Shown here: one piece after another, positions 866 through 34,613 of the stretch
How the letters are laid out: every line of letters starts with the position of its first letter
Position numbering within the stretch: position 1 is the stretch's first letter
DNA from: Turnera subulata
Taxonomy: Eukaryota > Streptophyta > Magnoliopsida > Malpighiales > Passifloraceae
Direction: 5' to 3'
DNA length: 64,000 bases
NCBI GenBank assembly: GCA_028386065.3
Contig: JAKUCV010002075.1
Location: 132,807 to 196,806, forward strand
Notes under the pieces: generated by a model
What the model was told of the DNA's origin: nothing
The model's input: only the letters and a program-made list of their open reading frames with translations
The model's database searches: none
Position numbers and translations under genes: made by a program

Positions 866-3800
866 ATGGCGTGGCCGGCTGCACTTGTTGTTCTCCCCGT
901 TGGTATACTTTTCTTGGTGTCTGGCCTCATAATCAATCTCATTCAGGTCCATTACTATTTCTCTTTGCCTTTAGATTGTTGATCAAGAACAATTTATGAT
1001 AATCGTTGGAATTCATGTCTTCTGCATGCTTTGCTAGCCAAAACATACAATTAGAAATATGTCATTTTTGCAGGCAGTTTTCTACATCCTTGTTCGCCCT
1101 TTGTCAAAAAATCTTTACAGAAGGATTAATAAAATAGTTGCAGAGCTACTCTGGCTGGAGCTTATCTGGCTCTTAGATTGGTGGGCAGGCTTGAAGGTAT
1201 TTCTTTTTTCTGCTTTTCTTCTTGATTTTCTTATTTCCTTTAGCTTATTTATGATGTGCACGTTACTTAAGGCTCTTTTTTCCCTCTCATCCCATCAATT
1301 AGGGAATCACTAATTGGGACTTCCATAGCAATTCTCATAATTGTGAAGTTATATATAACCTTATCTGATAGAAGAAGGGGAGGGTTGTGCTCATTGTATA
1401 CCTGTCATTGGACAACAAGAAGCAAGACATTCACTGTGTTTTGTACCTTAAGTCTAATATTTCTTCATTCCTGGCTCATTATAGCTCCTAACAACAAGTA
1501 GGAAATGAAGCTAAAAGCATGAACCTCCATTTAAAGTTTAGCTTTGGATCTGGAGAACATTTTGAAAGTCTTTTTTTCTTTTTTTCTTACGATCACCTAT
1601 TTATTGTGCATTGCACTGTCATTTTATGTTCCTTCACGGACCATGCACTATTTCTAGACAGAACTACTGCATATCTTTGTCCGTAATATGCTAACCTTCT
1701 GTCTGAGTTGGTTATAAGATGAGTGGTCCTATTCTTTCCCTAACTGCTTAATTGCATCTTCTGAATGCAGATTGAAGTGTATGCAGATGATGAAACATTC
1801 CAATCAATGGGTAAGCCACAAAAAATGTTCATTAATTATGAGTACCTGAACTTGTTTAATCTGTTTATGATGGGTAAATGAACTTGTCCTTTCTGTGTTT
1901 TCTTTTGTAATATATTCAGTATATAAAGTTAAGGCACATAATTTGTTTTCATTTTCATGTGCTAAGAGTTACATTTTTTTTTTGAGAAAATTTCAGGCAA
2001 GGAACATGCACTTCTCATTTGCAATCACAGAAGTGACATTGATTGGCTTGTAGGATGGATTATGGCTCAGGTGCCTTTATTCTTGCTTGCAACATTACGA
2101 GAAAGTTAATTTTAACCTTTTGTTCTGTTGCACGCACACTACTGTCCTTTTATCTTTAAAGTTTGATGATCCTAAATTTAAATGTTTTATCCTTTATCAC
2201 CAACATGGAGCTTGAACTGGAAGAATGCTGAAGTATGTTGAGCAGAGAGCCAATAAGTTTTCTCCTTCCATGTGTTTTTGCTTTTCCGGAATGATTTCTA
2301 CATCCAAATTGTTTATACCTCACCTTGCTGCTGGGTAGGAAAGTATTAGTATCAACGGCAATTTATGTTACCAAAACAATCAGATATTATAGCTCCTCGT
2401 GCATAACTTATAATTGTGTGATTTATGTTTAAGATAACTTCTAGAAAAATGTAAGATTACATGATCCAATATTTCTCTTTTCATTTTTGATAATACATTA
2501 TTTTCATATGTAGTTCAGGAGAATAGTAAGGTTCCTAAAAAGAATATAGTACAGAGCTGGCTACCATAGTAGCTTATAAAGCCTTGAGTTTGACAGCTCA
2601 AAGTTGAAAGAAAAAGAACAAAAGGCTTGCCACAATTCAAAAATTTCCTCTAAACATGTTTTATAAATGCAGTCATTCTATAATCAGCTCATACTGGTAA
2701 TCGTAATCATATCATCTCTTGATTTACTTTCTTTTTCTTTTATCCTGTTCAAACAGCGTTCAGGTTGCCTTGGTAGTACACTAGCTATAATGAAGAAAGA
2801 AGCAAAAGTACTACCTGTGAGTCCATAGAAAAGCATTCTCCGGTTCTTTTTTTCTTTCTTTCTCTTCTTGTTGTGCTACCTGCCTAACGGAGATGGTTTT
2901 CCTTTTCTGGAACTGTTTCTTATTTATCCTTGCTTCTCATTTGTAAATATATCTGCATCAAATAGAACATACTACATTAATATACCCTAGCTGTGGAATT
3001 CGTCAGCATTGGTGGTTGATGCTGCTGTTTTCTAAAGCCAATCTAAGCCTTCATAAAATGTGCTTTGACTGCTTTCATTGAACATCTGAAGTAAGAGGAT
3101 GTAAATTTACTTAATACGAGGGAACCTTTTCAGTTTTTCCAAATCAACATTATACTATGATGGTGATTTGGGAAGCGGAATATGTGCACCAGGTAAGCAA
3201 ATATATAAAGTTTTTGGTATCTGAGGCTTGAGGTAGCTCAAGGTCTTTTTCCTTGCTATTTTTTGTATGTACTTCCATTAGTTGCATTGTTGAAGAGTTA
3301 TTTCTTGTTGCTTTTTTCTAAGAGTGAATCAGTAGCAATGGTGTCATCAGATCAATTATTCATTATTCATATCTCCAAAAAAAAAAAAATCAATTATTCA
3401 TATGTTTTACCCTTAAATCTCTACAGGATAATTTTCCTTGCTATTTAAATAAAGTTTGTGACTATGTCACCTCGTATCAATGGCAGTACAATTAGTTACA
3501 GTCAAATTGGTTGTATAGGGATTGAAATCTGTACTTGTTTATTGACTTAATAATCATCCGCATGATTGTAGTTGTAGAGTGTACTATCTTTTTATCCATA
3601 AACCAAGGTCTAAAAGATATGGGAAATCGATGCAGATCATAGGATGGTCAATGTGGTTTTCTGATTATGTGTTTCTGGAAAGAAGCTGGGATAGGGATAG
3701 AACAACTCTGGAGGTAAGTTGCAATTTATGGTGGATGCAATATCTTTATAATGGATCATATCTTTGCTCGTCACGTTATATCTTACAAGATTCAGCACTG

Positions 3801-6444
3801 CAGTCGGCTTTTAGAAAACTGGCAGATTTTCCTGTGCCTTTTTGGATAGCTCTTTTTGTGGAGGGAACTCGCTTTACGCAAGAAAAGCTGAAAGCTGCCC
3901 AGGGGTTTGCTGCTTCAAGAGGGTTGCCTATCCCTCGAAATGTTCTGCTTCCAAGGACAAAGGTGATAATTCATAATTTACTCGGGGCTAGCCATCCACA
4001 AAATTGACTAAGATTCTTTAGTTGACTTATAATGTGGAGCATTTTGGTAGCAAATCATGGTATTGTTAATTTCTTCTAGTTAGAAAGAATCTAGAAAATC
4101 CAAAAAAAAAATTCAGGATCTTTGCTTTCACTTAATAAAAACCATCACTTGTACTAAGGAGTCTTGCATACAACTAATGCCTAGTGCTTATAAAGTAATT
4201 TTTGTTATCACATACATTGCAGCCTATTACCAGAACTGTTATTGTTAGTTCTCTAATGAAGCACATCTCATTATGGAATGTTTTGTTTTCCTTTCAGGGT
4301 TTTGTGTCAGCAGTAACTCATATTCGTTCCTTCGTTCCAGCAATTTATGACTGCACAGTGGCTGTTCAAAATAAGCAACCTGCACCAACGATGCTAAGAA
4401 TCTTTAAAGGACAATCATCTGTGGTAGGTTAACTGGACCCTGAAGACAAATAACTAGATTAAGACTTAGCTTTTGAGAACTGAGAACTTACATCAGTTCC
4501 TGGCTGGCAATTCTTTTTGCCATTCTCTTTAAATTTATAGTCAGAAGTCACTAATATTTTACTTTTTTTTATCAACCTCTCTGCTAACAATCTCCGGATT
4601 CCCTTGCACTTGACACACAATCTGAAAATTTCAAACCGAGGAAATTATCCACCCTCATCAAATCAGATTTAAGCTATCAGCTTGGAATATGGTTATATCA
4701 ATTTGAATAATTTTATTTTCTTTGTCAATCTCAAAAATTCATGAGAAGGTCCATCAAGGCTCGAGCTACATGTAAAGAAAGTAGCCTCCTTATGTTGGAA
4801 TGGTTTTCAAAATTAGGACGTAATTTGAACTCAGATGGAGCCATGCCGTTGGTCGTGTATATGTTATTCTCTTGGCTCAATGGAAGTTATAATAATTGCA
4901 GCTGAACCAGAATTTCATCACAAACACGCACATGACTCTGTTTTTGTGCAAGTTCAACCTGGCTTGAGCTCTAGCTACCCTAATGTAACAAGGCCAAGCT
5001 TCCCAAGCCGGTCCCATTCCTTACAAACAGCAAAGATGATTATGCCTCACAGTCGTGACTTGCCTAGCCTTCTGGGGCTATAAGGCCAAGCCACTATAGA
5101 TTTATACCCCATTTAGTGTTTGGTGGCTTGATTATATGGAATCCTTATGGCTACTTGCTCTTTTAATCCTATGGGTAAACATATGACAACACTGACCAGC
5201 CTGCAGTACTACCTAGCCAGTGAGCGTATCTGGAAACATCTAATTTAACCCTGAGTAAGCTTTAGTGTCTTTCAAGTCTAACATTTTATGGCGTTTACCA
5301 CAGATAAATTTGCAAATCAAGCGACATTCAACGAAGGAACTACCAGAAACATCTGATGGGATCGCCCAGTGGTGCAAGGATGTATTTGTGACGAAGGTAA
5401 CATATCATGGACCATTCATTTTCATTAAAAAGTAAAACTTGTGAAATATTACATCAGGCAAAAGCAAATTTTTTTTTTTTCCTTGTAACACCTAAAATGC
5501 CTAATCACTTCATCTGCATGAGGAAAAAGGAAAAATCATACATCATGCTAATCGGATTTCTTATTCGTTCATGTTTCTGCGATCAATGGTGATTCCCTAC
5601 TGTCAGATTGCACTTAACTAAATGAATTAGCCAACAGTCTGATATGGAGTATCCAGAGTTTGTTGCTGATTTGTAAATAATAGTCTAATGGAAGAAACAG
5701 AGGATTAAGTAAGTACCATTAGTAAATTAGATCCATCACCGGCAGAACATGATGTTGAAGCATAAGCATTATAAAATGGATGTTCTTGCTGATTCCTTAT
5801 TGTACCTACTCATATTTGTGCACTCGGTCTTTGTTGCTACCGGAAGCATTTGTACAAAATAATTAGGCAAGAATGAGTGGTTATTGTCGCAATAATCAAT
5901 CACGAAAAGAATCACATCAACTGCTCATTGTTTGTAAAAACTTTTAGAATGCTTCAGGATTCTATATATTTGCCATGTTTTCAGATTATGCAGCAAACTG
6001 TTTAGTAACTTTTCGATTACACTATACCAGGATGCTTTGCTGGAGAAATATGCTACTACAAGCACATTCAGTGAGCATAAACATCAAGAGATTGGTCGGC
6101 CTAAAAAATCTCTGATTGTAAGACAGCGCAACACAAAAAGGGATTATAATTCCATACAAGATTTGCATTTTCACTCCACTTAACCACGATAAATATATTT
6201 TCTTTAAAATTGGCAGGTGGTTATTTGCTGGTCAAGCCTTCTTGTCTATGGTATTTTCAGATTATTCAAGTGGTTGTTAATCTCGGAGTACTCATGGGAA
6301 GTCATTGTCTTTTCGGTGGCTTTATTGATTCTTGTTACCATTGTCATGCAAATTCTCATTCATTCATCCGAATCGGAGCGTTCTACACCGCCTAGAAGGG
6401 TTCATCCATCAGATGAAATGAAGCAACAGCTTCTTCAGAAATGA
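866..6444 (+). CDS. LPAT2: 1-acyl-sn-glycerol-3-phosphate acyltransferase (LPAT2-like), 11 exons
   Basis: Transfers an acyl group from acyl-CoA to lysophosphatidic acid, making phosphatidic acid for membrane lipid and triacylglycerol synthesis in the ER. Exons: 866-946, 1074-1196, 1771-1810, 1997-2070, 2757-2816, 3636-3713, 3804-3962, 4298-4423, 5304-5396, 6031-6117, 6217-6444. All introns are GT-AG and the joined frame is open, giving 382 residues, the usual plant LPAT2/3 length. Exon 1 encodes a hydrophobic N-terminal segment (about residues 5-25). The acyltransferase block I motif HX4D is visible as NHRSDIDW (exon 4), followed by the FVEGTR block (exon 7). Two hydrophobic segments close the protein in exon 11, before a charged tail ending QQLLQK. 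The start at 866 opens the hydrophobic segment, as in relatives. The assignment to LPAT2 rather than LPAT3 is by recalled similarity. Upstream intron lengths vary but no insertion is obvious. Confidence 0.93.
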
Positions 6445-8141: not shown

Positions 8142-8177
8142 GTGTCTTTTCCCATCAATCTCTTCTAGGAGTACTGC
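8142..8177 (-). pseudogene. endogenous caulimovirid RNase H fragment, left of the LTR element
   Basis: These 36 bases match the stretch beginning near 17933 in the second copy of the same viral segment. They continue on the far side of the retrotransposon at 15974, so they are the left flank of a split viral fragment. Read on the minus strand they encode part of the reverse transcriptase/RNase H junction. Upstream of 8142 the match stops. Confidence 0.75.
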
Positions 8178-8868
8178 TGTGGAAGCCCGTACCCCAATTA
8201 AATAAAAATAAAATAATTAAATAATTAAAATATCGCATCAAATCTAAATACTAAGAACAATAAAACAATAAGATGTTATGTGTTGGTGTGTGATTCTGAT
8301 TTGCTTGTATGCTGTACTTGTGCTCGTGAACTACTCACCCTACGAGCATGACTTCACTTTCATGTATACTTAGACTTTTAATGTTCACTGAGTAGGCGAC
8401 TCACATAATCGCCACCGTTGTTTTTCAGACCTTAGTTAGCGTGCAGACTCACTTATACCTTTGTCTCGGAGATCAGACGCAGTCACCTCAGCAGGTAGTT
8501 GTGCTTTATCTCTCGGTGGGATCCATAGGGCCATATGCATGATATTTTCTATCTTGAGTATTATTATTATTTTCATCTTCCGCTGCATGTGAAATAACTC
8601 GAGATGTCATAAATATTTTATCTCTATATCGGCAGTTAGCCGGAGTTGATTTTGTGATATTATGTCGGCGTGATGCCGTGATGGCTTACTACTTGTTAAG
8701 CCGGTTGATCTCATTTACTTTTGTGACATCTCGTTGTTAATACATTTTCATGGAAAATGTTTGTATGCCGAAGCATCGGTTTTTGTACCCCGGGTTTCAA
8801 GAGTATTTTGGTAACTCTTTTTCATTTAATTATTTTATTTTTATTTAATTGGGGTACGGGCTTCCACA
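8178..8868 (+). repeat. 5' LTR, truncated and re-ended by an inverted copy of its own 3' end
   Basis: Positions 8226-8868 match 15331-15973 of the 3' LTR with five substitutions, all transitions, and no indels. The first 45 bases (8178-8222) are a perfect reverse complement of the last 45 bases of this LTR (8824-8868), and equally of 15929-15973. The 3' LTR has nothing like these 45 bases before its matching part. So this LTR is the terminal 643 bp of a roughly 3.24-kb LTR with an inverted end attached. Confidence 0.85.
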
Positions 8869-8870
8869 GT

Positions 8871-8882
8871 TGGTAGCGGAGC
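8871..8882 (+). other. primer-binding site, initiator tRNA-Met type
   Basis: TGGTAGCGGAGC lies two bases after the 5' LTR end. It matches the usual plant initiator-methionine tRNA primer site, TGGTATCAGAGC, at 10 of 12 positions. This is the expected place for minus-strand cDNA priming. Confidence 0.75.
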
Positions 8883-9009
8883 GGGCTTCAGATCCTTGGT
8901 TTTAAAAGAAAAGTGACCTTAAATTACGAGTGATTTTAGTGTTAAATCCGGTTTCCTATTTTGAGATTTAAAAGTGTTTTGACTTGTTTGCATTCATATA
9001 GGCATCACT

Positions 9010-10323
9010 ATGGATCCACCGCAAGACTGGCACAATGCTGATGGGCTGGATGAACTTCCTAGTCATGTTTCCGACTCTGTGTCGGTAATGCCAGTCCCTA
9101 ATGGTCAGGGAAATGTTGGTGCGACTGGAGCACAGAATGCAGTGCCATTAGTACCTCCTGGTATGGATGCGGCGTTACAACAACAGTTTCAGGCTTTCCT
9201 GCAGTGGCAGCAATTTCAACAGTTTCATCAACAACAACAAGGCGCCCAAGCCGTTCCGGTCGCACCTGCCGTAGCACCAGTTGTTGGCGATATGGAGAGT
9301 GGTTATAAGCACATGGATAAGACAGCAGTTGAGATGTTCTCAGGAGAGAGAATCACAGCAAGGGTGGCCGATGATTGGTTCCGCTAGGTGGAGAACGTCT
9401 TGGAGAAATTCATGTATACACCAGAGCACTGGGCTCGATTTGCGGCACACAAGTTCACGGGTTACGCATTGAGCTGGTGGCAAGGACTTGTTATGAACCT
9501 ACCTAGACCAGTGGTGATGCCATGGGCAGACTTCAAGGACAAATTCTACAAGGAATTCCTTACCGTTGGATTCTTGGAGGACCAGAAAAAGCAGTTTTTG
9601 GAGGTGAAACAGGGACCCGATGAGTCAGTTTCTGCATTCAGGATCCGATTCAGTATTCTTCTCTCCTACGCCAAGGAGTTTGTACCTGATGAGGTGACAC
9701 AGTGTAGGCGATTTGTTGACGCTCTGCGTCGCGAGTTGGCGATGGTAGTGGCCGGTGGGAGACATCGGACTTGGGAGGCTGTTTGTGAGGCCGCTTTTGA
9801 TGCTGAGAGGATTCAGTTGATCGGGCAGGAGGCCCGGCCAGCCGAGCGGGAGAGACAGCCAACAATGCCGGGACAGAAGAAGCAACATTTTGGTTCGGGT
9901 GATGCAAGTTACATGAGTCGACAGGGTTCTTCCTACCAAGGTTCGAAGAAGTCCCGAGGACAGAAATACCAGGGTGGACCGGGCAAGTCTTCGGGAGGAA
10001 AGCCTTATCAGTCTGGATCTCAGAGGCGGGGCCCTTGGACTAGACCTCCTATTATATGTTGGTATTACGGGAAGCAGGGACACCACCAGTCAGAGTGTTA
10101 CACGAGGATTCGTGATAATGGAGGTAGGGGGTCCCAGTATACCGTACAGAACTCCGTGGCTAATGGTACAGGTTCTTCTACTCCAAACAAGAGTGTTGGA
10201 CACAAGGGAGGAAGTCGTGGGAGTTCTGGAGCCCCGGGTCGTGGAGGTGCTGATCGATCTGTGGCGACTCCCAGGGTGTACTCTATCACTCGAGAGGAAG
10301 CGGCTGACGCTCCAAAAGAATGA
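9010..10323 (+). pseudogene. retrotransposon gag with an in-frame stop and damaged zinc knuckle
   Basis: Encodes a capsid-type polyprotein of the retrotransposon gag family. The frame opens MDPPQDWHNADG and is continuous for 438 codons except for one TAG at 9385-9387, where a sense codon is expected between WFR and VENVLEKFMY. The gag core follows, with WWQGL, FKDKFYKEFL and FLEVKQGPDESV, then a Gly/Ser/Arg-rich basic stretch. Near 10057 a zinc knuckle reads CWYYGKQGHHQSEC; the usual CX2CX4HX4C has lost its second Cys to Tyr. Relatives continue into protease and reverse transcriptase, but here the frame ends after ADAPKE. About 75 bases downstream, CTTCGAGGACGAA resembles the motif that normally follows pol in such elements, consistent with deletion of pol. 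Confidence 0.85.
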
Positions 10324-10616: not shown

Positions 10617-11300
10617 CTAACGGTTCGGAACGACGTTGACACGGAAGCTGTTGGGATCGCTGTTGATGTTGACCGTGACTCTGTCGCTCCACGAGAGCCA
10701 CATGCCGCCTCTGTCGCGCTGGCCAGGAATCTCGAACCGGTTAGCTTGAGGGAATCGGAGAGGGATGAGACCGTGATCGTCCCGAGGTTGCCACTGCGTC
10801 TCCGTCAGAAGAACCATATTCGGTTTGTACTGGTTCTTCAAGTCCCTCAGCGTACGTGAGAACTCTTGAGCGCGCCTTGCAACTCCCCTGCAGTTCCATA
10901 CCAGCAGCCGTACCTTTGGCCAAGTTGGAGGTAAGCACGTCATTCTGGGTATGCTCTGAGCCGTCATCGAGAGCTGGTAGTAGGCGCCTTGCTCCACCGT
11001 CTGGCAAGTGGACTCCAGGTTGAACTCCTAAAGCCTGTCGGAGATGAAGAACATCACGGAGTTTGCCGATCCGTAGTAGGATGTCCTCAGAGTGCCACGA
11101 TCCTCCAGGAAGAACACCTCTTCTATTGGTGTGACAAAGAACCGCGATGAGTAGAGCTCGCCGACGAAGACCAGTCGGGGCATCCTGCCGAGCTCGTTCG
11201 GTAGTTCTTCGGCACGTTCATTGACCATGCTGTAGGCCAGTCGGTTCCTTCTGCCAAGGTTGGCACCTTCGACAAAGAAAACTGATGATGGGGCAGGCAT
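10617..11300 (-). pseudogene. antisense ORF in the retrotransposon, endonuclease-like C-terminus, one internal TAG
   Basis: One minus-strand frame of 228 codons runs from ATG at 11300 to a TAG at 10617, broken only by an in-frame TAG at 11030-11028. The N-terminal 90 residues (MPAPSSVFFVEGANLGRRNR...) are not recognised. After the internal stop the same frame encodes VRLLVWNCRGVARRAQEF, then NMVLLTETQ and GGMWLSWSDRV. This order resembles the start of endonuclease/exonuclease/phosphatase domains, as in plant LINE ORF2, but it is short and the later catalytic motifs are absent. A TATA box and an AATAAA bracket it, so it looks like a self-contained gene. The TAG could be a disabling mutation or a readthrough site; the sequence cannot decide. 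Product unknown. Confidence 0.55.
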
Positions 11301-12141: not shown

Positions 12142-12540
12142 CTACGGAGTTACATGATGTTTCAGATCGGTTACAAGTTTTTGTATATTCGCGACCTGAG
12201 AAGAAAGTCCCATACAGGCCAGTTCAATTTGCATCACTGCAGTGTGGACCTTCTTCAGTGAAGTGTCCAGTTGCTTCATTATCTGCAGTGGTGTGCTAGA
12301 CTTATCTGCTGCCTTGCCTTTCCTATCTTTTGCATCCTTGTTACCAGAAGGTCCTTCATTGCTTACACGCTTCTTTCGCCGTCTTGGGGGAATCACCATA
12401 TGCTCCTTTAGGCCGATGATGTTGGTCTTGAACCGCTTCTTCGGGGGTTCCTCATCGGAGCTTGTCGGGAAAGCTCTACCACCGATGTAACTGTTATCCT
12501 CTGAGTCAGAGGTAGTACGGGATCTTAGTGGTGAGTCCAT
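12142..12540 (-). CDS. antisense ORF of the retrotransposon: basic, probably nuclear 132-residue protein
   Basis: An intact minus-strand frame starts with ATG at 12540 and encodes 132 residues. The first third is acidic and Ser-rich (MDSPLRSRTTSDSEDNS). Two basic clusters follow, PPKKRFK and PPRRRKKR, each looking like a nuclear localisation signal. A Lys/Asp/Gly-rich linker leads to a C-terminal segment (about residues 85-130) with spaced hydrophobics suited to a coiled coil. No enzymatic motif is seen. It sits between gag and the 3' LTR with its own TATA box (12574-12581) and AATAAA (12101-12106). Some plant Ty3/gypsy elements of the Tat lineage are reported to carry extra antisense ORFs with promoters in this position. 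Whether this one is homologous to those is inference. Confidence 0.6.
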   Translation of the reverse strand: MDSPLRSRTTSDSEDNSYIGGRAFPTSSDEEPPKKRFKTNIIGLKEHMVIPPRRRKKRVSNEGPSGNKDAKDRKGKAADKSSTPLQIMKQLDTSLKKVHTAVMQIELACMGLSSQVANIQKLVTDLKHHVTP

Positions 12541-12710: not shown

Positions 12711-12729
12711 TTTTTAAGGTGGGTAGAAC
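12711..12729 (+). other. polypurine tract and preceding retroelement tail
   Basis: A purine-rich run, AAGGTGGGTAGAAC, directly precedes the LTR start TGTAACGCCCCGG at 12730. Just upstream, AATTTCGAGGATGAAATTCT is the kind of motif that precedes the 3' LTR in many plant Ty3/gypsy elements. This fixes the start of the 3' LTR at 12730 rather than near 15300. Confidence 0.7.
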
Positions 12730-15700
12730 TGTAACGCCCCGGTTTTCCGTTTTTGGATTTATAAAGAAAATTCCGAATTTCGGTAATGGAAATAAAATTA
12801 ACTTATTTCCCCTTCGGATTTATTAATTTTAAGCAGTAATATGTCGTTTTTGAGCTTTGTCGGACGTAAAACGAGTTTCGGGATGAAACGCGGCGTTTAA
12901 CGTAGTTTCGGTTTAAACTACGTCGTTTTGGGGTTAAAAAAAAAAGTCAACCTGGCGGGTTGACCCAGCCAAACCAGACGACACGTCGTCTGGCTGGCTA
13001 GGTCAAGCCCAGCACAGGCGCGCGCCCCTCATTCTCTTCTTCTTTTTTTTCTTTTTCTTTTCTCCTCCACTTTTCTTTTCTTCTGCCCGTTGCTCCTCCA
13101 CCCAGCCGCCGCCACCCTCAACGGCTTTGTCTTCCACTACCACCATCAACCGCGCCCTCATCAGTCTTTAACCCCCACACCCTCACCCTCTCTTTTCCTC
13201 CTTATCTCTCCTTGTCTTCGCTCCTGACCCGAGGTACCGGAAACCTCCAATTCCTCCACATTCCTCTTCCACCACCAACAACATCACCTTTGTCCTTCTT
13301 CCTCGTGCTTTCCGCCGCCCCAGTCGTCTTCGCCAGTCGCTACCGCCACGAGCTCGAGGCGATTTGCGTCCTCACTGGGCGTGTTAGGATTGAAGGTGAG
13401 GCTGGGAACGAACCGAACCTGTGCCGCCGTCGCTCGGTAAGTGCCTCCGTTGTCCTTCCTCTTCCTCTTCTCCTTTTCGTTTTGGCGGAGACAGATTGAT
13501 GATGATGACGGTCTGCTGCTGATGGTTCTGTCTTCCGGTGGCAGAGCTTGCAGACGCGCGGTTCGTCACGACGTCTGGGTTCGTCCTGGAGCGGTGGACG
13601 ATGGGCAGTGACGACTAATTTGTTCCATTCTGGTAAGGACCCTATACCAATTTCTTAATACGTGTTGTTGTTGGAGTTGGTTTTGGTTTGAATCGAGTGA
13701 TTGAATGGATGGTGGCAGTGCGTGATGGTTGCTTCCGGTGACGCTGTAGAAGTTTTTCCCGGCAAGTTGGCAGTGTTTTCCGGGTAAGGAATTGTTGCCA
13801 TAGTTCGCTTAATTTCGTTTTATGCCTGTATATGTTGGATTTGAGCTGTATATCCTGTTGGTTGTTGTTGTTTTGGACGATGGCAGCTGTGTGGGGTTGT
13901 TTTGGGCTGAGTGGAATTCCGGCGAGGTGACCAAAATCCGGCGAGCGCGCACTGTTCCGGCGAGGGCTCGGGAATTTCCGACGAAGGCTCGGGTTCTGTC
14001 TAGCGGAATATATGTCTCGTTCTACGACTGTTTGACGGTAATTACTTTTGTTTGTCTCGGTTTTGTCTTGTATATGAATTTTGAATTATTGATAGAAATA
14101 CATATTTATATGAACGTGTATATAATGTGAATTGGGGTTAACCGAGAGTGGAGAGTTAGAGTGTGTGGCCGGGGGAAATTACCGACACGGATAGAACCTT
14201 AGGCCGATTAACCTTGGGCTCGGGATGGCATTAGGACGATTTTAGGAAAAACCGAGCCCAGGCCCAATAATCTCAATTCGAAGCTTAGAATGTTTTAAAA
14301 GGACTTAAAGTTATGGACTTAGGACCTAATCACGGGTAATTAAATTCACGGACATTAAGAACGGGTTCGAAGCCCAAATTTCATAATCGGTAAATATGGA
14401 CTTAAGAAAGTGGGCCCACGGCCCAGAATTTGTGAATAAGGATTTAGTGGGCCTTAGGCCCCGAGAATTTGTTAATTGACTTAAACCGATGAATCTTGGA
14501 TCCCTAATCGTGGGAGTTATGGAAGAGAAAATATCCTTTTGGACTTAGACCCGGAAGTCTTATAAATTGGATAGTTAGGGTCGAGAGATACTCGATTAGA
14601 GAATACCATTAGCATACATACACGTTTTATTCCTAAAATTGGTTTAGTGATTATATTATGTGTCGGTATTCAGGCACGGGAGATACCTCGGGAGCTGTAG
14701 ACTCGGATCGGGAAGAAGTCATAGCTGCATTTTTGAGGTGACATTACAAGTCTTTTTATATATGTTTTGTGAATGCATGTTGGTGTGGTTTGTTTGTTTA
14801 CTTGCCTTGTTTGCTACATGCGATGGTTGGAATTGTATACCTGCTTGTTCTCACATGCCTAATTTCTATATGAAAAACTGTTATGAAAAACTACTTTGGT
14901 GATAATGCATGGTTATGGGCCACAGGCCCGGATGAAACAGCGACACATACAATTCACACTTCCCTGAAAGACATAATGTATCTCAACGGAAATGTAAAAA
15001 AAAAACGTAATTAAGAATAAAATACTAAATTCTACTGTGTATCGGTTGGTAGCCCCGAGGGAGGGTTGGGTACCCTCGGGTCACATTATGCTGTTTAGCA
15101 TGCCCAGGGGATGTAGGTGCACCCCTGGAAGACTTGCACCGGTTAGGTGTGTCTGAGTGCACCCTCAGGTAGCTAGCGGCCACTCGAGAGTTTTCAGTGG
15201 TTTTGGCCTTAGAATCTACCCCTTCTGAGGTTCGACATTTGGGTTTCACACCCTGATCTGATCAGATGCACTACCGAGACTTGACTCACAGTAGAGGGCC
15301 CATAATGATAAAAATAATAATTATAATAATTAAAATATCGCATCAAATCTAAATACTGAGAACAATAAAACAATAAGATGTTATGTGTTGGTGTGTGATT
15401 CTGATTTGCTTGTATGCTGTACTTGTGCTCATGAACTACTCACCCTACGAGCATGACTTCACTTTCATGTATACTTAGACTTTTAATGTTCACTGAGTAG
15501 GCGACTCACATAATCGCCACCGTTGTTTTTCAGACCTTAGTTAGCGTGCAGACTCACTTATACCTTCGTCTCGGAGATCAGACGCAGTCACCTCAGCAGG
15601 TAGTTGTGCTTTATCTCTCGGTGGGATCCATAGGGCCATATGCATGATATTTTCTATCTTGAGTATTATTATTATTTTCATCTTCCGCTGCATGTGAAAT

Positions 15701-15973
15701 AACTCGAGATGTCATAAATATTTTATCTCTATATCGGCAGTTAGCCGGAGTTGATTTTGTGATATTATGTCGGCGTGATGCCGTGATGGCTTACTACTTG
15801 TTAAGCCGGTTGATCTCATTTACTTTTATGACATCTCGTTGTTAATACATTTTCATGGAAAATGTTTGTATGTCGAAGCATCGGTTTTTGTACCCCGGGT
15901 TTCAAGAGTATTTTGGTAACTCTTTTTCATTTAATTATTTTATTTTTATTTAATTGGGGTACGGGCTTCCACA
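12730..15973 (+). repeat. 3' LTR, about 3.24 kb
   Basis: Begins TGTAACGCCCC directly after the polypurine tract and ends CTTCCACA at the target duplication. Its last 643 bp equal the 5' LTR. Internally it has ACGT-type palindromic promoter-like motifs (about 12915-12990), a pyrimidine-rich tract (13030-13090) and a GC-rich segment. Open frames inside it (for example 13212-13499 and 15862-16263) show no protein features and are treated as chance. Related LTR sequence occurs at 58965-59686 and 59905-63185. Confidence 0.75.
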
Positions 15974-15978
15974 ACTGC

Positions 15979-16613: not shown

Positions 16614-17955
16614 TTATTTGTTGATTGGTTCATGGTTGGGGCTGAGATTACAATCCTTATCTAGGTCATAGGGACTGCCTGGCCAGTCGTCATGTATGAC
16701 ATCATCTAGATCAAGACAACTGTCATCATTCAAATCACGTGCATTATTTAGTGCATCGAATTCTTCATTCTCAATGCGAAGTTGGTTGTCCCCTTCTTGA
16801 ATGTTCTGGAAAACATTGTCATATGCACAACAGATCTGGGAGTATGGATTTTGTGAGTCTTGAAATCTGGCTGGATCCGGAGGAATCAGTGACAAGGGAA
16901 CCATAGCTATGGTGTTGGACCCTTTGTCCCAATCTGGATTGTAACCATTAATGACACAGAGGTATTACCATGCTTCTTTTAACAGATATGGAGGTGGTTC
17001 CACTGTGGTATACCTTTTCCATGGAGTGACAACTGGATGGGGAGTTGGAGGATAACTCTGGTAGGGTCTGAATGCTGTGAACAGAATACACAGTCGTGGA
17101 CAAAGGTGGTCCTCTGTTTCATCCAAAGCTGATTTGAGCCAGGTTCTCCACTGATGAAGTGGAGCAAACCACTGCAAGAGTGTCCACTGATTTGAACCTT
17201 GTTCATCTAAATCCATTAAGTGTTCAAACACGTCCAAAGCTTTGAGATGCAGGATGCCATAATTTGTGGTGAACAAACACCAGTTGTACCAAAGCTCATC
17301 ATCTAAAAAGCTATTGATGTGGACAATGCTGACTCGTCTGAACAGATGATCTGGAAAGAACTGGGATGAAAAGGTTTGGAGAAGTCTGCTCCTTGGTACA
17401 CCAGGAAATTAGTCAGAAAATAGAACATGACATTTCTAGCATATTGTCGGATGATGAAAACATCAAGTTTCTTCTTTTGAGCCAGGACAGGGGGCATTGT
17501 TTCTGGATTTATAGCCATGTCTGACCAGGAGGCTTGGTTTTCCGGTGTTTTCCAATAGAAATTGGGAGAGGAGGAAGCCATTAAGACCAGTGGGATGATC
17601 TTGACAGGGGAAACCAAATGAATGGATGATTTTTGTGTTGGCCGTGAGAGCATATCCGGTATGAGGTTGTGGTCTCCTTTTATATGCTTCACTGAGAAGT
17701 CATATTTGTCAAAACACTATTTCCATCTGAGGAGTTGTTTGTCTGGTACTCTCTTGTTTTTGAAATCAAGAATCTTTGGGAAAGATGAGTTGTCCATTTC
17801 CATAATAAAGTGAAAATTTTCCAGATAAAATTCAAACTTCTTGATTCCATATTTGACTGCAAGGAGTTCCTTGTGGGTAGAATGGTAATGGAGTTCTGCG
17901 TTGGAAAAGTTGTTACTTGCATGGCCGCAGTAGTGTCTTTTCCCATCAATCTCTT
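16614..17955 (-). pseudogene. caulimovirid RNase H and C-terminal polyprotein region
   Basis: The minus strand encodes the RNase H end with the hallmark HIKGDHNLIPDMLSR (near 17690-17640), then a C-terminal extension with TLLQWFAPLHQW and SYPPTPHPVVTPWKRY, ending with an acidic tail and EPINK at 16614. Frames are interrupted at about 17949-17689, 17303 and 16965-16904 by stops or shifts. This region lies downstream of the reverse transcriptase fragment at 18220-17955. Confidence 0.8.
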
Positions 17956-18220
17956 CTAGGAGTACTGCTCCCTAGTACTCATCACTTGCTTCTGTCTGGT
18001 GAATTCTGGTTCCATTGGATGGAATCTTGAGTGGAGGAGGGTCCTGGGCTATCTTCTTTACTCAGTCTCCCTCATTAACTCTGCTAAGCTTCTTTATGGG
18101 TACTCTCCCCATGTAAGCCAGTATGGCTCCACTACCACAGGTCATCGGGAGCCTTCCATAATTAAAAGGCAAACACGCAAGGCGAGACCTTTCTCAAGCC
18201 CACACCATAGGGCGATTCTA

Positions 18221-24482: not shown

Positions 24483-27400
24483 ATGGGTTCACTGAAGAAC
24501 GAGGCGGACATGGAACAGACTGGAGATGATGCCTCGTCGTCCGGCGAGGCCATCCTCTACGTGAATGGAGTTCGCAGAGTGTTGCCTGATGGTTTGGCTC
24601 ACCTCACCCTTCTCGAGTATCTTAGAGGTAACTAATGGATGATGGGCGCCCAAGAATTCCACTTTTGAATCCAATAGCTTGCTTGTACTGTGTTCTTGTG
24701 TTTTGGACTTCTATCAAGTAAAGAGCTTGATGCAACAATTTGATGGGTGTTTCCTCCCTCCTGTTTTTTGTGTTCTCAATTTGGCAAGTTGCTTTTTTGG
24801 GGGTACGAAAATGGAGGGTAAAATACTAAAGGGAGCAGAAAGTCTTGCACACATTGGCTCACTGAGCTGCGTAAATTTAGTGTTTAAGTTTAATCAGCTA
24901 CTCCTTAATACTCCTATTATTAGCTGAATTTTGTGAATTTTTTTTTTGATTTACTAGAAACTTAATCATAGTAACTAACTGCCGTATTAGTAGAATTGGC
25001 TTAATTTCTATGTTGTCAGTCTTTGCCGAACTCTTTTAGTGCAACTGAGCAGGAAGGAGTGGCACTTGGAAAATTTTGGGATATAGATGATGATGTATTT
25101 GAATGCTGACCTTATTCTAGTTTCCCTCTCTATCTCTCTTCTCTTTCTGAATTTCTCTTCTGTTTTGACGTAATGAAGACATAGGTCTGACTGGCACTAA
25201 GCTAGGCTGTGGGGAAGGTGGTTGCGGTGCCTGCACTGTTATGGTCTCTCACTATAACAAAACATTGAGGAAATGTGTGTGAGTTTCTTATTCTGTTTCT
25301 TTTCTTCTTCCTTTGAGATTTCACTCAATTTGTGATGTATTCTATTATTTCTAAGGATCAATTGGAACTTTACCCTGGGAACATTCTTTTCAGGCATTAT
25401 TCGGTTAATGCATGCTTGGCTCCTTTGTATTCTGTTGAAGGGATGCACGTTATTACAGTTGAAGGAGTTGGCAATCACAAAAGTGGTTTGCACCCAATTC
25501 AGGTAGAAACATTGTTGTAACTATATTTTCTCTGTTTTTGTGCACAGTGCTCACTGTTAGCCGTTCTTTTGAATAATTCCTAAGGACCCTGTCTAAAATG
25601 TATTAACTTAATACTTATTGTTCGCTAACTTTTGCATACCTTTTGTGGGTTGGACTATGAAATCTGCTAGTACATTGTTAGTATCATAGTGTGGGAGTTG
25701 ACTATTGTACCAGTATCCATGAGGCATAATGTGAGAGATGAATCTTTACCTATCGGTCACTCCATTTTTTTCCCTGGGATTATACAGATAGTTTGTCCTA
25801 GTTGTGCGGGCACTTAATTGAGGATAATAGACTGCCTTGTTCATTCTATAAGTTTTGTATCTTTAACATTTAAACTTACTGTTTCTTCATGTCAAACCAT
25901 TTACAGTAAAAGAAATATTTATTAAAAAAATCTTTTGGGATACCTGAATGAGGTCTTACAAGTCTCTGCTTCTGCACTACATCCTGCAGGAAACCTTGGC
26001 TCGCTCCCATGGCTCCCAATGTGGATTTTGTACTCCTGGATTTATCATGTCAATATACGCACTATTGAGATCAAACCCAAACCCACCTACTGAGGAGCAA
26101 ATTGAGGAATGCCTTGCTGGAAATTTGTGCCGATGTACTGGCTACAGACCAATTGTTGATGCATTTAGAGTTTTTGCTAAAACAGATGATGCGTTGTATA
26201 CCCATACCTCCAGCGAGTTTCTCTGCCCATCAACTGGTAAACCTTGTTCATGCAAATCAGAAACTGTAAATAGCACACATAAGTATGAGCAAAATTTGGC
26301 TTGTTCCAATAAGTATAAACCTGTCTCTTACAGTGAGGTTGATGGTAGCAGATATACAGACAAAGAGCTTATTTTTCCTCCTGAGCTGTCACTGAGGAAT
26401 CCAAGTCCTTTGAACTTGAGTGGATTTGGTGGGCTTAAGTGGTACAGACCCTTGAGACTTCAACATTTGTTGGCATTGAAAGCAAAATATCCAAATGCAA
26501 AGTTATTGGTTGGCAACTCTGAAGTAGGGATAGAGATGAGGTTGAAGAGAATACAGTATGATGTATTGATCTCTGTTGCACATGTACCTGAACTCAATGC
26601 CTTGAGTGTTAAAGATGATGGCCTAGATATAGGGGCTGCAATCAAATTGACTGAACTCCTGCAAACATTTAGGAAAGTGGTCAATGAGCGTGATGCTCAT
26701 GAAACATCATCATGCAAGGCTTTCATTGAACAATTAAAGTGGTTTGCTGGGATGCAAATAAGAAATGTGGCATCTGTCGGAGGGAATATATGCACGGCCA
26801 GTCCCATATCAGACTTGAACCCTTTATGGATGGCTGCTAGAGCGCAGTTTAGAATCATTGATACAAAAGGAAACATTAGAACGACGTTGGCTGAGAATTT
26901 CTTTCTGGGTTATCGAAAGGTGGATCTTGCTAGTGGTGAAATTTTGCTATCAGTATTCTTACCATGGAATAGGCCTTTCGAATTTGTGAAAGAATTTAAG
27001 CAGGCTCACAGGAGGGATGATGATATTGCAATTGTAAATGCTGGAATGCGCGTATCTTTTGAGGAAAAACGTGAAGAGTGGATAGTATCTGATGCATCGA
27101 TTATTTATGGTGGGGTTGCCCCTGTGTCTTTGCGTGCTATTAAAACAAAGGAGTTTCTCGTTGGAAAGAATTGGAATCAGGAACTTTTTCAAGATGCTTT
27201 AAAAGTATTGCAAACGGATATTTTGCTCAACGAAGATGCTCCTGGCGGGATGGTGGAGTTTAGGAAATCTCTGACTCTTAGTTTCTTCTTCAAATTTTTC
27301 CTTTTTGTTATTCAACAGATGGAAGGGAAGAAATCCGTTACGGAAAGTATACCAGCATCTCATTTATCAGCTGTTCAACCATTCAAACGGCCATCAGTTA

Positions 27401-30400
27401 TGGGAAGCCAGGACTATGAAATTAAGAAACATGGTACATCTGTGGGCTTGCCAGAGGTTCATATGTCATCTAGACTTCAGGTATGTGAAAAATCAGAAGG
27501 ATGCATGATTTTACATTGGACATGGTGCATGCATGCACAAATAAGCTCAATTCAATATTTGAACTGTGTGGAAAGTTTTTGGGCTGGTTCTTAGTGCAGC
27601 TGACAAATTTGAGTTTCTTTTTTGGACACTTATTGCTTTTCCTGTCATGAGGCTTTTGCATAACTGCACAATCAACACTTCCAAATGTTGAATGACTTTG
27701 TATTTGTCATATCCAATGCATTTTGGTAGATATCTTTTTCAGGGGACTTGTGTCTTCATGATCTTCATTTGTAACTTTCTCTAGGTTACAGGGGAGGCGG
27801 AGTACGTTGATGACATACCAATGCCCTCCAATGGTTTGCATGCTGCATTAGTCTTGAGCAGAAAACCTCACGCCCGAATCCTCTCAATAGATGATTCAAA
27901 AGCCAAGTCCTCACCTGGGTTTGCGGGCATATTTTTAGCCAAAGATGTGCCTGGAGATAATCATATTGGACCGGTGGTTCATGATGAAGAGCTATTTGCG
28001 TCAGAGTTTGTGACTTGCGTTGGCCAGGTAAGAAGATTACCAAATGGTTGAGGTTTTATACTTTCCGTTGTCTTGATAGTTCTGTTCTTTTATTAAAGTT
28101 TTAACTAGTTGTGTTTAAAAGTTCTATGTGTTGATTACAATAAATTTAAACCCAACTCAATCTCTAATTGGAGCTATGATGAAAAAAAAAAAATGGTTTT
28201 AGTATTTGTAATATCAACAACATAAGCAGTCAAGACCTCTGTGCCCCTCTCACGTTCCAACCCAAGAAGCTTTAAAGGCAATAGCACAGATTGCTTGCTC
28301 TCCAGCATCAAGCTTGCAAGCTCTTGGCCAAATGCCCAAAAGTTGTGTGTTTGTATTGTAATACCCTGAACATAATTATGACCTGCTAAAGCTGATCTAT
28401 GGCAATGCAATACAATTAATAAATTTTCTATCGATTTTTTTTGTGAATATATGGAGATGAGATGGTTTCTTGGAATATATTGATTATTTTACTTTTTGGC
28501 GCACACTGACGCTTGGATATATTCTTTTTCCAGGTTATAGGAGTTGTTGTGGCAGATACTCATGAAAATGCTAAACTAGCGGCAAGAAAAGTTCACGTTG
28601 ATTATGAAGAACTTCCAGCAATATTGTCGATAGAGGAAGCAGTCAATGCTGAAAGTTTCCATCCCAACACTGAGAAGTGTTTGAAAAAGGGTGATGTGGA
28701 TCTCTTTTTTCAGTCAGGTCAATGTGACAAGATCATAGAAGGGGAAGTTCAGGTGGGTGGTCAGGAGCACTTCTACTTGGAGACTAACAGTAGTCTGGTT
28801 TGGACTGCGGATTGTGGCAATGAAGTTCATATGATTTCATCCACGCAAGTAAGTTATTTGTTTTCAGTGTTGTTCATAAGTTACCTCTTTCTCACTTACC
28901 CATGCCATACCTACAACGAAAATTAAACTAATGAAAGATGCACCGACTTCAAAGTAGAAGAGTAGATCTTAATGACAGATCTTCTCATAACCATGTCTTT
29001 TTTTTTTATGTACCAACAGGCATGCATTACTATATGTATGGTTGTAGAGTGGTTCCTGTTCTCGATGAATGTCTTTTATTGCATGCATGACTCTATTTCC
29101 ACATTGGTTCTCGTTACGGTTTGTAAAATGCATTGCTTGATTCTGCTCTCCGTTTCAGTGTCTTGGTCAAAGTATTTTCTTTTATAACAACTTCAAATGC
29201 ACACACTCCGTTGGTTCTGTCTTGATCTTAATTGCATTTTTTGGTTATTTGAAATATCATCTTTTAATGTTTCGATGCCCTGTAGCACAACTGCGAGCCT
29301 TAAATTTGATAGTGTTGTCAACCAAATGTGTTTGTGTGTCCATTGTACAGTGATTGTTTAATACATCTAAATCACAAGAGTCATGGCATTATATTCTGTG
29401 TGCAGGCTCCTCAGAAGCACCAAAAATATGTGGCTCATGTTCTTGGTCTTCCAATGTCAAAAGTAGTTTGTAAAACTAAGCGAATTGGCGGTGGATTTGG
29501 TGGAAAGGAAACAAGAGGAGCTTTCATCAATGCTGCTGCTTCTGTTCCGTCATATCTGCTGAACAGACCTGTAAAGCTCACATTGGACAGGGATGTAGAT
29601 ATGATGATAACTGGGCAGCGCCACAGCTTTCTGGGAAAGTACAAGGTGTCAATTTTATTTCTCATCCTGGATTTTTGTGTGTGTTCTATATATATATGTG
29701 TGTGTGTGTGTATGTATGTATGTGTGTGTATATATATATTGTTTTAATTGCAGAACATAAGGTAGAATTATTCTGGGTTTGAATTGCCACTTTATGGTTC
29801 CTGAAGTTCAAATGGAATATTTTACCACTATTGCATCTTCGTTAGAGGCCTCCAAACATGATCCTCATTCTTTGGTCTGCAGGCAGTATAATACATCTAG
29901 ATCAGCCATTTCTATGTTTCAGCTCAAAATGGAAAATTTGCACCTGCACATAACTGTTTCTTGGTCATGTCCTGAAGTAAATAAAAAGGATCTACAATAA
30001 TTTGGTTGTTTGCATTGGTTTGTCTTTAGCAAAGGAGAATGAGGTCGGGTAACAAGAAGGGGCGGGCACTAGGGGTGTCATGTTTTAACAGGGTTTACCA
30101 TGGATTGACGAAGCAAGAGGTGGCAATGGAAATCCAAGTAGTACAAAAAAATTGTTTTCATTCTCCCAATGTTAATACTTTTCATTGTCAGTTCATGTGC
30201 CTTAAAAATTTGGCTAGCTAAGAAAAAGCAGGAGAGACTTGTTGAAGCTTTTCGTATCAGGTGAACTTGGTAATATTCATGATGCAACTTCCTTGTAATC
30301 ACTTGACCACAGACATAGATTTCGCGAGCCAATAAAAGGAAAAAGAAAAAAGAACACTGGAAAACTGTTTTTGCCTTCCCCTCGTTCTGATGCTTTCCTT

Positions 30401-33400: not shown

Positions 33401-34613
33401 AACTTGAATTTTCGTGACCATCTAAGTTCCTAATTGTTATGAATTTAGTCAAAGGTTCACTATTGATTTGGTGCTAAATTTTTTTTGCAGCTGGTCGGGG
33501 CATGTTACATGCAGCGAATAGATCTGTCTGCTCATGGATTTTACGTTGTTCCAGAGATTGGATTTGATTGGATATCTGGTAAAGGAAATCCATTTAGGTA
33601 TTTCACCTATGGAGTTGCATTTGCTGAGGTTGAGATTGATACTTTGACTGGAGATTTTCATACAAGGACAGCCAATATTATCTTGGATCTCGGTTTTTCT
33701 CTTAATCCGGCCATTGATGTTGGACAGGTGTGTTTCTCTCTCCTCCTGAGGTCTGTCTAATCACGATTGCAAACTTCAATTCATTGACCTCCCAAGTTGT
33801 ACTGCCTATAATTTAGTCCTTCTAGGAGAAACCCGGAATTTTGTTGGTCTCTGAATTCCTTTCTATTCTTGTCCAGAAAAGGAATTCCTTCTTGTGGCAA
33901 ACGCTTTGATAAGTTTGTATCTAACAGTTGTGCATTCCAATATGATACAGATTGAAGGAGCTTTTATACAAGGCTTGGGGTGGGTAGCCCTAGAAGAACT
34001 AAAATGGGGTGATGCAGCACATAAGTGGATTCCTCCGGGCTGCTTGTACACTTGCGGGCCTGGAAATTACAAGATTCCTTCCATAAATGACGTTCCATTC
34101 AAAATCAATGTTTCACTGCTAAAGGTAAGATTCTATCAACTTCTTGTCATTTGCTGTGATAATTTCATTCCTCAAAAACTATTTATTCTCAACATTTTTG
34201 GTTGCTTCTTTTCATGCTGTTGTTTTGACTTGAGCTGTCTCTTTCATCTCCAACATGTGTCAAGAAGATTGATTTGAACTCATAAAGAATGTTTTGCTTG
34301 TGCGTTTGATGATCTAACGTGGCCTTTAATTACAACTCTTTCTGCATCCATGATTCCTTTGCTTTCACAGGGTCATCCAAATAAAACAGCTATACATTCA
34401 TCAAAAGCTGTAGGTGAGCCTCCATTTTTCCTGGCTTCAGCCGTCTTTTTTGCCATCAAAGATGCTATCAAAGCTGCACGAGCAGAGGTCGGGCATATTG
34501 AGTGGTTCCCTCTTGATAATCCAGCAACACCGGAACGGATTCGTATGGCCTGTTTAGATGAATTCACTGCACCATTCGTGAGCTCCACTTATAGACCCAA
34601 GCTTAGTGTTTGA
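24483..34613 (+). CDS. XDH1: xanthine dehydrogenase, first tandem copy (XDH-A), 14 exons
   Basis: Oxidises hypoxanthine to xanthine and xanthine to urate in purine catabolism, using NAD+. Exons: 24483-24627, 25179-25278, 25394-25502, 25990-27480, 27785-28027, 28534-28848, 29406-29645, 30540-30824, 30914-31135, 31998-32159, 33041-33175, 33491-33727, 33951-34124, 34371-34613; all GT-AG. The joined frame is open and gives 1366 residues, the size of known plant XDH. [2Fe-2S] cysteines: C59, C64, C67, C89 and C129, C132, C165, C167. The FAD site reads LLVGNSEVG (290-298). Molybdenum-site equivalents of bovine Q767, K771, E802, R880, F914, F1009, T1010 and E1261 are Q801, K805, E836, R914, F948, F1043, T1044 and E1302. 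Start 24483 ([12 protein letters not shown]) resembles plant XDH N-termini; 24510 is an in-frame alternative. Likely the conserved housekeeping copy. Confidence 0.95.
29688..29738. repeat. TG/TA microsatellite in intron 7 of XDH-A
   Basis: Alternating TA, TG and TATG units (tatatatatgtgtgtgtgtg, then tatgtatg) directly after exon 7. A simple sequence repeat likely to vary in length between individuals. Confidence 0.85.

What the first reader, a model, noticed from the sequence alone, without database searches (positions are those of the whole stretch)
8178..8868. 5' LTR begins with a 45-bp inverted copy of its own 3' end
The 3' LTR is about 3.24 kb (12730-15973), fixed by the polypurine tract. 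The 5' LTR has only its last 643 bp, preceded by 45 bases that are the perfect reverse complement of the LTR terminus. The whole element thus has 45-bp terminal inverted repeats and still made a precise 5-bp target duplication. A plausible history is an incomplete cDNA whose end folded back and copied the LTR terminus, creating an end that integrase could use. That would be a rescue route for defective cDNA.
Basis: partly seen in the sequence, partly recalled or inferred. Interest (0 to 1): 0.75.

Follow-up and report, generated by a model that had tools for sequence, protein, structure and literature searches.

The report
Retrotransposon with inverted, truncated left end
A plant jumping element was copied into DNA wrongly, so that its left end is a short inverted copy of its right end, yet it still inserted cleanly, which suggests that faulty copies can be rescued and gives a rare trace of how the copying went wrong.

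Summary
8178-8222 is a perfect 45-bp reverse complement of the LTR terminus; the rest of the 5' LTR (8223-8868) matches the end of a full 3,244-bp 3' LTR. The 5-bp target duplication ACTGC is exact, and an unoccupied paralogue of the site aligns without gaps to the joined flanks. The odd end was therefore most likely made before integration. The joint occurs once in the 519-Mb genome (up to 3 mismatches). It lies where two similar AT-rich LTR tracts meet, with the similarity on the inverted-end side only. A second copy (L064) joins the same two tracts at another point with the loop reversed, as self-primed minus-strand strong-stop DNA would, but its flanks are entangled with a palindromic repeat, so it supports recurrence only with reservation. 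Of 30 sampled 5' ends 26 were readable: 24 normal, L064, and the window copy itself. Known kind: aberrant reverse transcription. New variant: a U5 terminus at both ends. The strand order is inferred, not shown.

The parts
8173..8177 (.). left copy of the 5-bp target-site duplication, ACTGC
   Evidence: sequence; empty-site paralogue
8178..8222 (+). inverted U5 terminus (45 bp, perfect reverse complement of LTR end), outermost part of the 5' LTR
8220..8222 (+). 3-nt junction overlap AAT between inverted terminus and LTR stub (equals 15325-15327)
8223..8868 (+). LTR stub in normal orientation (last 646 bp of the LTR); about 2.6 kb of the LTR's first part missing
   Evidence: alignment; 5 mismatches to the 3' LTR counted in that alignment
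8871..8886 (+). primer-binding-site-like stretch, two bases after the LTR end (assignment by position; the tRNA was not identified)
   Evidence: sequence; the LTR-end/PBS joint occurs 247 times in the genome at up to 3 mismatches, control 0
9388..10323 (+). gag reading frame (Retrotrans_gag PF03732); no pol domain in the four frames scanned, so taken as non-autonomous
12716..12727 (+). polypurine-tract-like sequence before the 3' LTR
   Evidence: sequence
12730..15973 (+). full 3' LTR, 3,244 bp
   Evidence: sibling LTRs
15299..15338 (+). inner AT-rich tract of the LTR at which the inverted terminus is joined
15929..15973 (+). LTR terminus (U5 end) with its AT-rich tract; same sequence as the donor of the inverted end
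15974..15978 (.). right copy of the target-site duplication, ACTGC
17933..18219 (+). unoccupied paralogue of the insertion site

Best explanation
This is a gag-bearing LTR retrotransposon, apparently non-autonomous, whose left end was built wrongly during reverse transcription and then integrated normally. SHOWN: the outer left 45 bp are the U5 terminus in inverted orientation, joined to the LTR at an AT-rich tract that resembles the U5 AT tract, and the element has a clean 5-bp duplication. INFERRED: a short minus-strand DNA that began at the tRNA primer (5' end = U5 terminus, 3' end about 45 nt on) annealed through its AT-rich 3' end to the similar tract in a longer minus-strand DNA and was extended as plus strand through the rest of the LTR into the primer-binding site. 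This DNA-primed strand replaced the normal plus-strand strong-stop DNA, which is primed at the polypurine tract. After ordinary second-strand transfer and copying, the cDNA had a left end that is a genuine U5 terminus, and integrase joined two U5 ends to the target. The bases at both LTR borders inside the element read AAC|TGT, which, if kept in the cDNA, may be why the swap was tolerated.
For: Exact terminus and exact 5-bp duplication; gapless empty-site paralogue. Similarity at the junction is on the primer side only: 13.0 against 0.0; 5 of 3183 LTR positions reach 13.0, the joint included, four of them in this same tract. In a separate test the inner tract is the best match in the LTR for the first 70 nt of the minus strand (15.5, next site 14.0). 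U3 border AAC|TGTAACG, reversed U5 border AAC|TGTGGAAG. Siblings are ordinary: of 33 stretches fetched hold a 5' LTR joined to the PBS; 3 are cut by N or contig ends, 10 reach an ordinary LTR start and one (L030) runs into the first part of the LTR with no start found. A second copy, L064, joins the same two tracts, again with one-sided similarity (10.5 against 0.0; site ranked 1 of 2143 positions of the LTR part in hand).
Against: AT-rich tracts match each other easily: 5 of 89 other 70-mers of the LTR minus strand find an equal or better match somewhere in the LTR, so such similarity is not rare in itself. The exact overlap is only 3 nt. Neither the 45-nt primer nor the longer minus-strand template is observed. 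L064, the only other case found, has tangled flanks and by itself would fit a later rearrangement. One pattern search for a joint at the next-best AT tract found nothing. Later correction of an imperfect palindrome to a perfect one could have moved the apparent junction (not tested).
Confidence: 0.5

Rival explanations
1. Fold-back or template jump of the minus-strand 3' end: minus-strand synthesis into the left LTR stopped at the AT tract, the 3' end jumped to the U5 end of a minus strand (for example the displaced flap) and copied 45 nt out to its 5' terminus.
For: Also pre-integration; explains the exact terminus and the duplication. Self-priming of minus-strand strong-stop DNA is described for HIV-1 (passages of PMC4668388). 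L064 has the layout expected of self-primed strong-stop DNA.
Against: No pairing for the 3' end beyond the 3-nt overlap: right-side score 0.0. By reasoning, folding back on its own left LTR would run on into the primer-binding site instead of stopping at the terminus, and jumping to the flap leaves a branched end. The predicted fold of the isolated strand does not pair the two tracts.
Confidence: 0.27
2. Post-insertion rearrangement: a normal 5' LTR was altered by a replication or repair event with two template switches (TGT/CTGT at the LTR start to the inverted LTR end, then back at the AT tract), deleting about 2.6 kb.
For: LTR start and reversed LTR end share TGT, and here also the preceding C (one search reports 46 nt with 8177/8869). 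The second joint has the right similarity for a strand moving rightwards. L064's right flank shows that complex joints occur.
Against: Both switch points would have to fall by chance exactly on the element's two termini. The LTR parts differ at only 5 sites in 646, leaving little time. Flanks and duplication are intact.
Confidence: 0.13
3. End-joining of a broken LTR fragment (45 bp of U5 end) to an incomplete double-stranded cDNA before integration.
For: 3-nt microhomology is enough for microhomology-mediated joining.
Against: Does not predict the one-sided similarity of about 20 nt at the joint nor reuse of the same tract pair in L064.
Confidence: 0.07
4. Assembly artefact.
For: The assembly has gaps (runs of N in several fetched loci) and the LTR is highly repeated; reads could not be seen.
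Against: No N in the window. A mis-join would not be expected to put the exact terminus next to an exact duplication confirmed by an empty paralogue.
Confidence: 0.03

Closest known systems
HIV-1 proviruses with asymmetric LTRs (PMC9278108; passages read)
   Same: Integrated copies with one intact and one truncated LTR, ascribed by the authors to misalignment during reverse transcription; 26 of 88 proviruses there.
   Different: There 24 of the 26 have an intact 5' and a partly deleted 3' LTR; the two with a shortened 5' LTR lack under 100 nt. A figure legend mentions proviral genome inversions, which I did not look into; the passages shown describe no inverted U5 terminus at the left end.
Self-priming of minus-strand strong-stop DNA in HIV-1 (described in passages of PMC4668388, citing Guo et al. 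1997; that paper is not held)
   Same: Minus-strand strong-stop DNA primes DNA synthesis on itself; L064's layout is what this would leave.
   Different: In those passages a side product reduced by nucleocapsid protein, not an integrated element; the window copy needs the reciprocal reaction (5' fragment as primer).
Plant non-autonomous LTR elements carrying only gag (TR-GAG type; name recalled, not from a call)
   Same: Long LTRs, gag frame with PF03732 and no pol domain in the frames scanned, many copies.
   Different: Ordinary members have two full LTRs; this copy does not.
Retroviral autointegration products (recalled)
   Same: Abnormal LTR joints made before integration into the host.
   Different: Autointegration joins the terminus inward; here the terminus faces outward and is joined by its inner side.

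Membership tests
LTR retrotransposon, Ty3/gypsy-like, non-autonomous | two LTRs with TG...CA ends, 5-bp target duplication | tested here: met
   siblings (e.g. L009 AGTAA, L010 CGATC, L014 TACTT). The left LTR is a stub whose TG comes from the inverted U5 end
LTR retrotransposon, Ty3/gypsy-like, non-autonomous | gag domain | tested here: met
   Retrotrans_gag PF03732, E 8.3e-14
LTR retrotransposon, Ty3/gypsy-like, non-autonomous | pol order (integrase after RT) that separates Ty3/gypsy from Ty1/copia | tested here: inconclusive
   no pol domain in the 4 frames scanned; the superfamily rests on the gag model and general knowledge
Aberrant reverse-transcription product (asymmetric-LTR type) | clean integrase-type insertion with unequal LTRs | tested here: met
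Aberrant reverse-transcription product (asymmetric-LTR type) | joint at similar or repeated sequence | tested here: met
   (3-nt exact overlap, one-sided score 13.0, 5 of 3183 positions); control: 5 of 89 other 70-mers match as well somewhere
Self-primed minus-strand strong-stop DNA | joint at the 5' end of the RNA (start of R) | not testable with these tools
   no transcript data; the two joints lie within about 30 nt of one another in the LTR
Self-primed minus-strand strong-stop DNA | inverted U5-R followed by a short direct U5 end and PBS | tested here: not met
   met in L064, not in the window copy, whose loop is in normal orientation
DNA transposon or foldback element with terminal inverted repeats | terminal inverted repeats shared by the family, and a transposase | tested here: not met
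   inverted end seen in this copy alone; siblings examined have ordinary LTRs; no transposase domain in the 4 frames scanned

The most novel reading that the evidence does not exclude
Minus-strand strong-stop DNA can repeatedly stand in for plus-strand strong-stop DNA: as a short primer on another minus strand (window copy) or by folding on itself (L064). This yields cDNAs with no U3 in the left LTR and a U5 terminus at both ends, which integrase accepts. It would be a by-pass of polypurine-tract priming, directed by a fixed pair of AT tracts in the LTR. The high-copy palindromic repeat seen beside L064, which has the same TG...CA terminus at both ends and 5-bp duplications, might be an extreme product of a similar route.
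Probability: 0.3. Interest if true: 0.72.

Novelty: new variant of a known kind. Interest (0 to 1): 0.5.

Why it matters
Fossil integrations of faulty cDNA record which strand primed on which template, information that otherwise comes mostly from test-tube work. A U5/U5-ended element with a perfect target duplication would imply that the integrase used here does not need a U3 end and that plus-strand priming at the polypurine tract can be by-passed. Such copies lack most of the left LTR, so annotation by LTR pairs may miss them. The idea is testable by counting inverted left ends in long-read plant genomes.

Tried and rejected
Autointegration was rejected because the terminus faces outward. 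One founder with many descendants was not found: the 48-nt joint occurs once in the genome at up to 3 mismatches, and among the 40 LTR copies scored (of 2746 first-look candidates, so a capped list) only the own locus covers query positions 1-24 in that orientation. A joint at the next-best AT tract was sought with one exact-anchor pattern: 0 matches. Two exact-anchor patterns for joints at the inner tract each gave the same 2 places, window and L064. Their recall is limited: in 71 LTR ends in hand the anchors that were checked occur in 48, 56 and 61 (the slightly shorter anchor was not checked), gaps were fixed ranges, and joints elsewhere in the LTR were not sought. L064 was first read as a second clean integration with a 4/5 duplication; the paralogous target and more right flank showed that GATAT flanks a composite whose right end is an arm of a palindromic repeat, so that reading was withdrawn. 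L052 is also odd (no LTR upstream of the joint); by eye it looks like a nested, inverted relative at a contig end, but this is unresolved. L021 has an older inverted LTR beside it, read as nesting. Folding the supposed strong-stop DNA gave a stable structure (z -3.14; 0 of 20 shuffles as good) in which the U5 tract does not pair with the inner tract; this speaks against an easy fold-back, in L064 too. Ten paper searches listed no report that I recognised, from titles and abstract starts, of an integrated LTR element with an inverted U5 left end; some searches listed 20 of 48, 15 of 30 and 15 of 28 papers; only open-licence PMC text is held. Passages, not whole texts, were read of PMC4668388, PMC9278108 and PMC10986323.

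Full report
THE OBSERVATION. The left end of the element begins TGTGGAAGCCCGTACCCC and is, for 45 bp, the perfect reverse complement of the LTR terminus at 15929-15973; the same holds for 8824-8868. Behind it the 5' LTR follows the 3' LTR to the end; the two parts overlap by three bases, AAT, at 8220-8222 = 15325-15327. The 3' LTR is complete (12730-15973). The duplication is ACTGC on both sides. The window holds an unoccupied paralogue of the target (17933-18219): the two flanks, joined after removal of one ACTGC, align to it over 287 nt, 272 identical, no gap. Insertion was therefore clean at base level. The 5' stub and the 3' LTR differ at 5 of 646 sites (counted in the alignment), so the copy is young.

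THE ELEMENT. Two adjacent reading frames after the primer-binding site (9010-9387, 9388-10323), the second with the Retrotrans_gag domain (E 8.3e-14), and no Pfam domain in the other three frames scanned, suggest a non-autonomous, gag-bearing element. It belongs to a large family: the LTR-end/PBS joint occurs 247 times in the 518.7-Mb genome at up to 3 mismatches, with 0 in the reversed-pattern control. The host is a plant, judged by an extensin-like gene in the window (the name is my reading of the repeats). Four sibling LTRs measured are 3,142-3,569 bp long; L038 has a shorter one. Sibling LTRs begin TGTAACGCC, and 5-bp duplications are seen, e.g. AGTAA, CGATC, TACTT.

IS THE INVERTED END SHARED? 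Not as far as could be seen. The 48-nt joint pattern has one match in the genome at up to 3 mismatches, and among the 40 LTR copies scored (capped; 2746 candidates) only the own locus covers the first 24 bases of the query in that orientation. This is one event in one copy.

IS THE MECHANISM REPEATED? The first 30 of the 100 listed joints, all with 0 mismatches, came with up to 1.5 kb of upstream sequence. Four cannot be judged to 690 nt upstream: L051, L066 and L071 are normal as far as they go and then meet N or a contig end; L052 shows no LTR upstream and is probably a nested relative. Of the other 26, 24 continue as normal LTR as far as they can be read, one is the window copy (L069), and one, L064, is abnormal. 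The other 217 joints were not read this way; 14 of the stretches also hold a 5' LTR joined to the PBS (two of them at the same places as L048 and L053), and none of the 11 readable ones has an inverted end. In L064 the left LTR reads: reversed LTR from the terminus inward for about 680 nt, up to the same inner AT tract, then the last 15-19 bases of the LTR in normal orientation, then the primer-binding site. Its inverted part differs from its own 3' LTR at only 4 of 682 sites, so this too arose in that copy. Two exact-anchor patterns for joints at the inner tract found these two places and no other; their recall is limited.

CAUTION ON L064. I first read its duplication as GATAT/GTTAT. A paralogue of the target (L077) and more right flank show that GATAT flanks a composite: behind the 3' LTR come GTT and one arm of a palindromic, high-copy repeat ending GGGCCTTCACA, then GATAT and the expected target sequence. 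That repeat has TG...CA ends, and 5-bp duplications flank it at two of three other places examined: TGCAA at C4970 and AATAG at C246. GTT is also what follows the LTR end in the family's LTR/PBS joint, which suggests an unprocessed cDNA end. But a history in which the repeat came first (its start, TGTGAAGGCCC, resembles TGTGGAAGCCC) and the element was later rearranged inside it is not excluded. L064 is good evidence that the two AT tracts can be joined again; it is not a second clean integration.

WHICH STRAND DID THE COPYING? A growing strand that changes template should pair, at its 3' end, with the new template, so similarity between donor and acceptor should lie on the side already synthesised. 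In the window copy the 30 bases on the inverted-terminus side score 13.0 against the LTR upstream of the joint, a value reached at 5 of 3183 LTR positions (the joint included; four of the five in the same tract); on the other side the score is 0.0. So the strand most likely grew from the U5 terminus inward: a minus-strand DNA of about 45 nt, started at the tRNA primer, that annealed to the inner tract of another minus strand and was extended as plus strand. In L064 the similarity lies on the side of the long reversed arm (10.5 against 0.0; site ranked 1 of 2143 positions of the LTR part in hand when the overlap is counted): a minus strand of about 680 nt that folded on its own 5' end, copied it, and copied the tRNA end that gives the primer-binding site. 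The two copies would be reciprocal products of one hybrid between the U5 tract and the inner tract. Against this: AT-rich tracts resemble each other anyway (5 of 89 other 70-mers of the LTR minus strand match somewhere in the LTR at least as well), and the predicted fold of the isolated strand does not pair these two tracts.

WHY BEFORE INTEGRATION. The outer terminus is exactly the U5 end; the duplication is exact; the empty site aligns without gap. A later rearrangement would have to hit both termini by chance, helped only by the shared (C)TGT. Autointegration would put the terminus inward. [quoted passage not shown] The bases at both LTR borders inside the element read AAC|TGT, so a U5 end on the left may be close to what integrase normally sees there.

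WHAT IS KNOWN. Asymmetric LTRs are frequent in HIV-1 proviruses (26 of 88) and are ascribed to misalignment in reverse transcription; 24 of the 26 have a deleted 3' LTR (PMC9278108, passages; a legend there also mentions proviral inversions, not followed up). Self-priming of minus-strand strong-stop DNA is described for HIV-1 (PMC4668388, passages). Homology-independent transfers of completed strong-stop DNA are described in vitro (PMC10986323, passages). Ten paper searches of the open-licence library (three of them listed only part of their hits) showed no integrated LTR element with an inverted U5 left end that I recognised from titles and abstract starts; most subscription literature was not searchable.

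VERDICT. Real; a rare product of faulty reverse transcription that was integrated cleanly; a new variant of a known kind. Pre-integration origin is likely (my estimate 0.85). The DNA-priming direction is favoured but unproven (0.5). Recurrence is suggested by one further copy with complicated flanks.

Noticed in passing
L074, L078-L084: A high-copy, nearly perfect palindromic repeat (arms about 160 bp around CATCTGCAGATG, ends TGTGAAGGCCC...GGGCCTTCACA, in tandem units joined by AAAAAAGGCGCCTTTTTT or similar in the three places fetched) with a B-box-like GAGTTCGAATCC and 5-bp duplications at two of three places (TGCAA at C4970, AATAG at C246). The same LTR-like terminus sits at both ends; its class is unclear.
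   Followed up: partly
L084 (C814:125860-126260): The same palindromic repeat is joined near its centre to a sequence that by eye resembles the reversed U5 end of a related LTR family, similar to the joint beside L064.
   Followed up: no
window 55869-57482 (+): 537-aa extensin-like reading frame over an array of about 29 copies of a 48-bp repeat (SPPPPSPSPPPPYVYK); marks the host as a plant.
   Followed up: no
window 10617-10997 (-) and 12142-12540 (-): Antisense reading frames inside the element, without Pfam match; the first looks by eye like a piece of LINE-type endonuclease. The whole internal region is shared with sibling L010 at 93%.
   Followed up: partly
window 9010-9387 and 9388-10323: The gag frame is split by one in-frame stop between two adjacent open frames.
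   Followed up: no
window 24546-34618 and 36866-53045: Blocks of about 77-93% identity in direct order, which look like parts of two further related mobile elements or a duplicated region.
   Followed up: no
C469, L021 about 3435-3911: A sibling element sits head-to-head beside an older inverted LTR relative (77-83% identity), probably a nested insertion.
   Followed up: partly
L052 (C1005:1-231): A 5' LTR/PBS joint at a contig end with only the last bases of the LTR, preceded by what by eye is a reversed LTR start; nested insertion or another abnormal end.
   Followed up: partly
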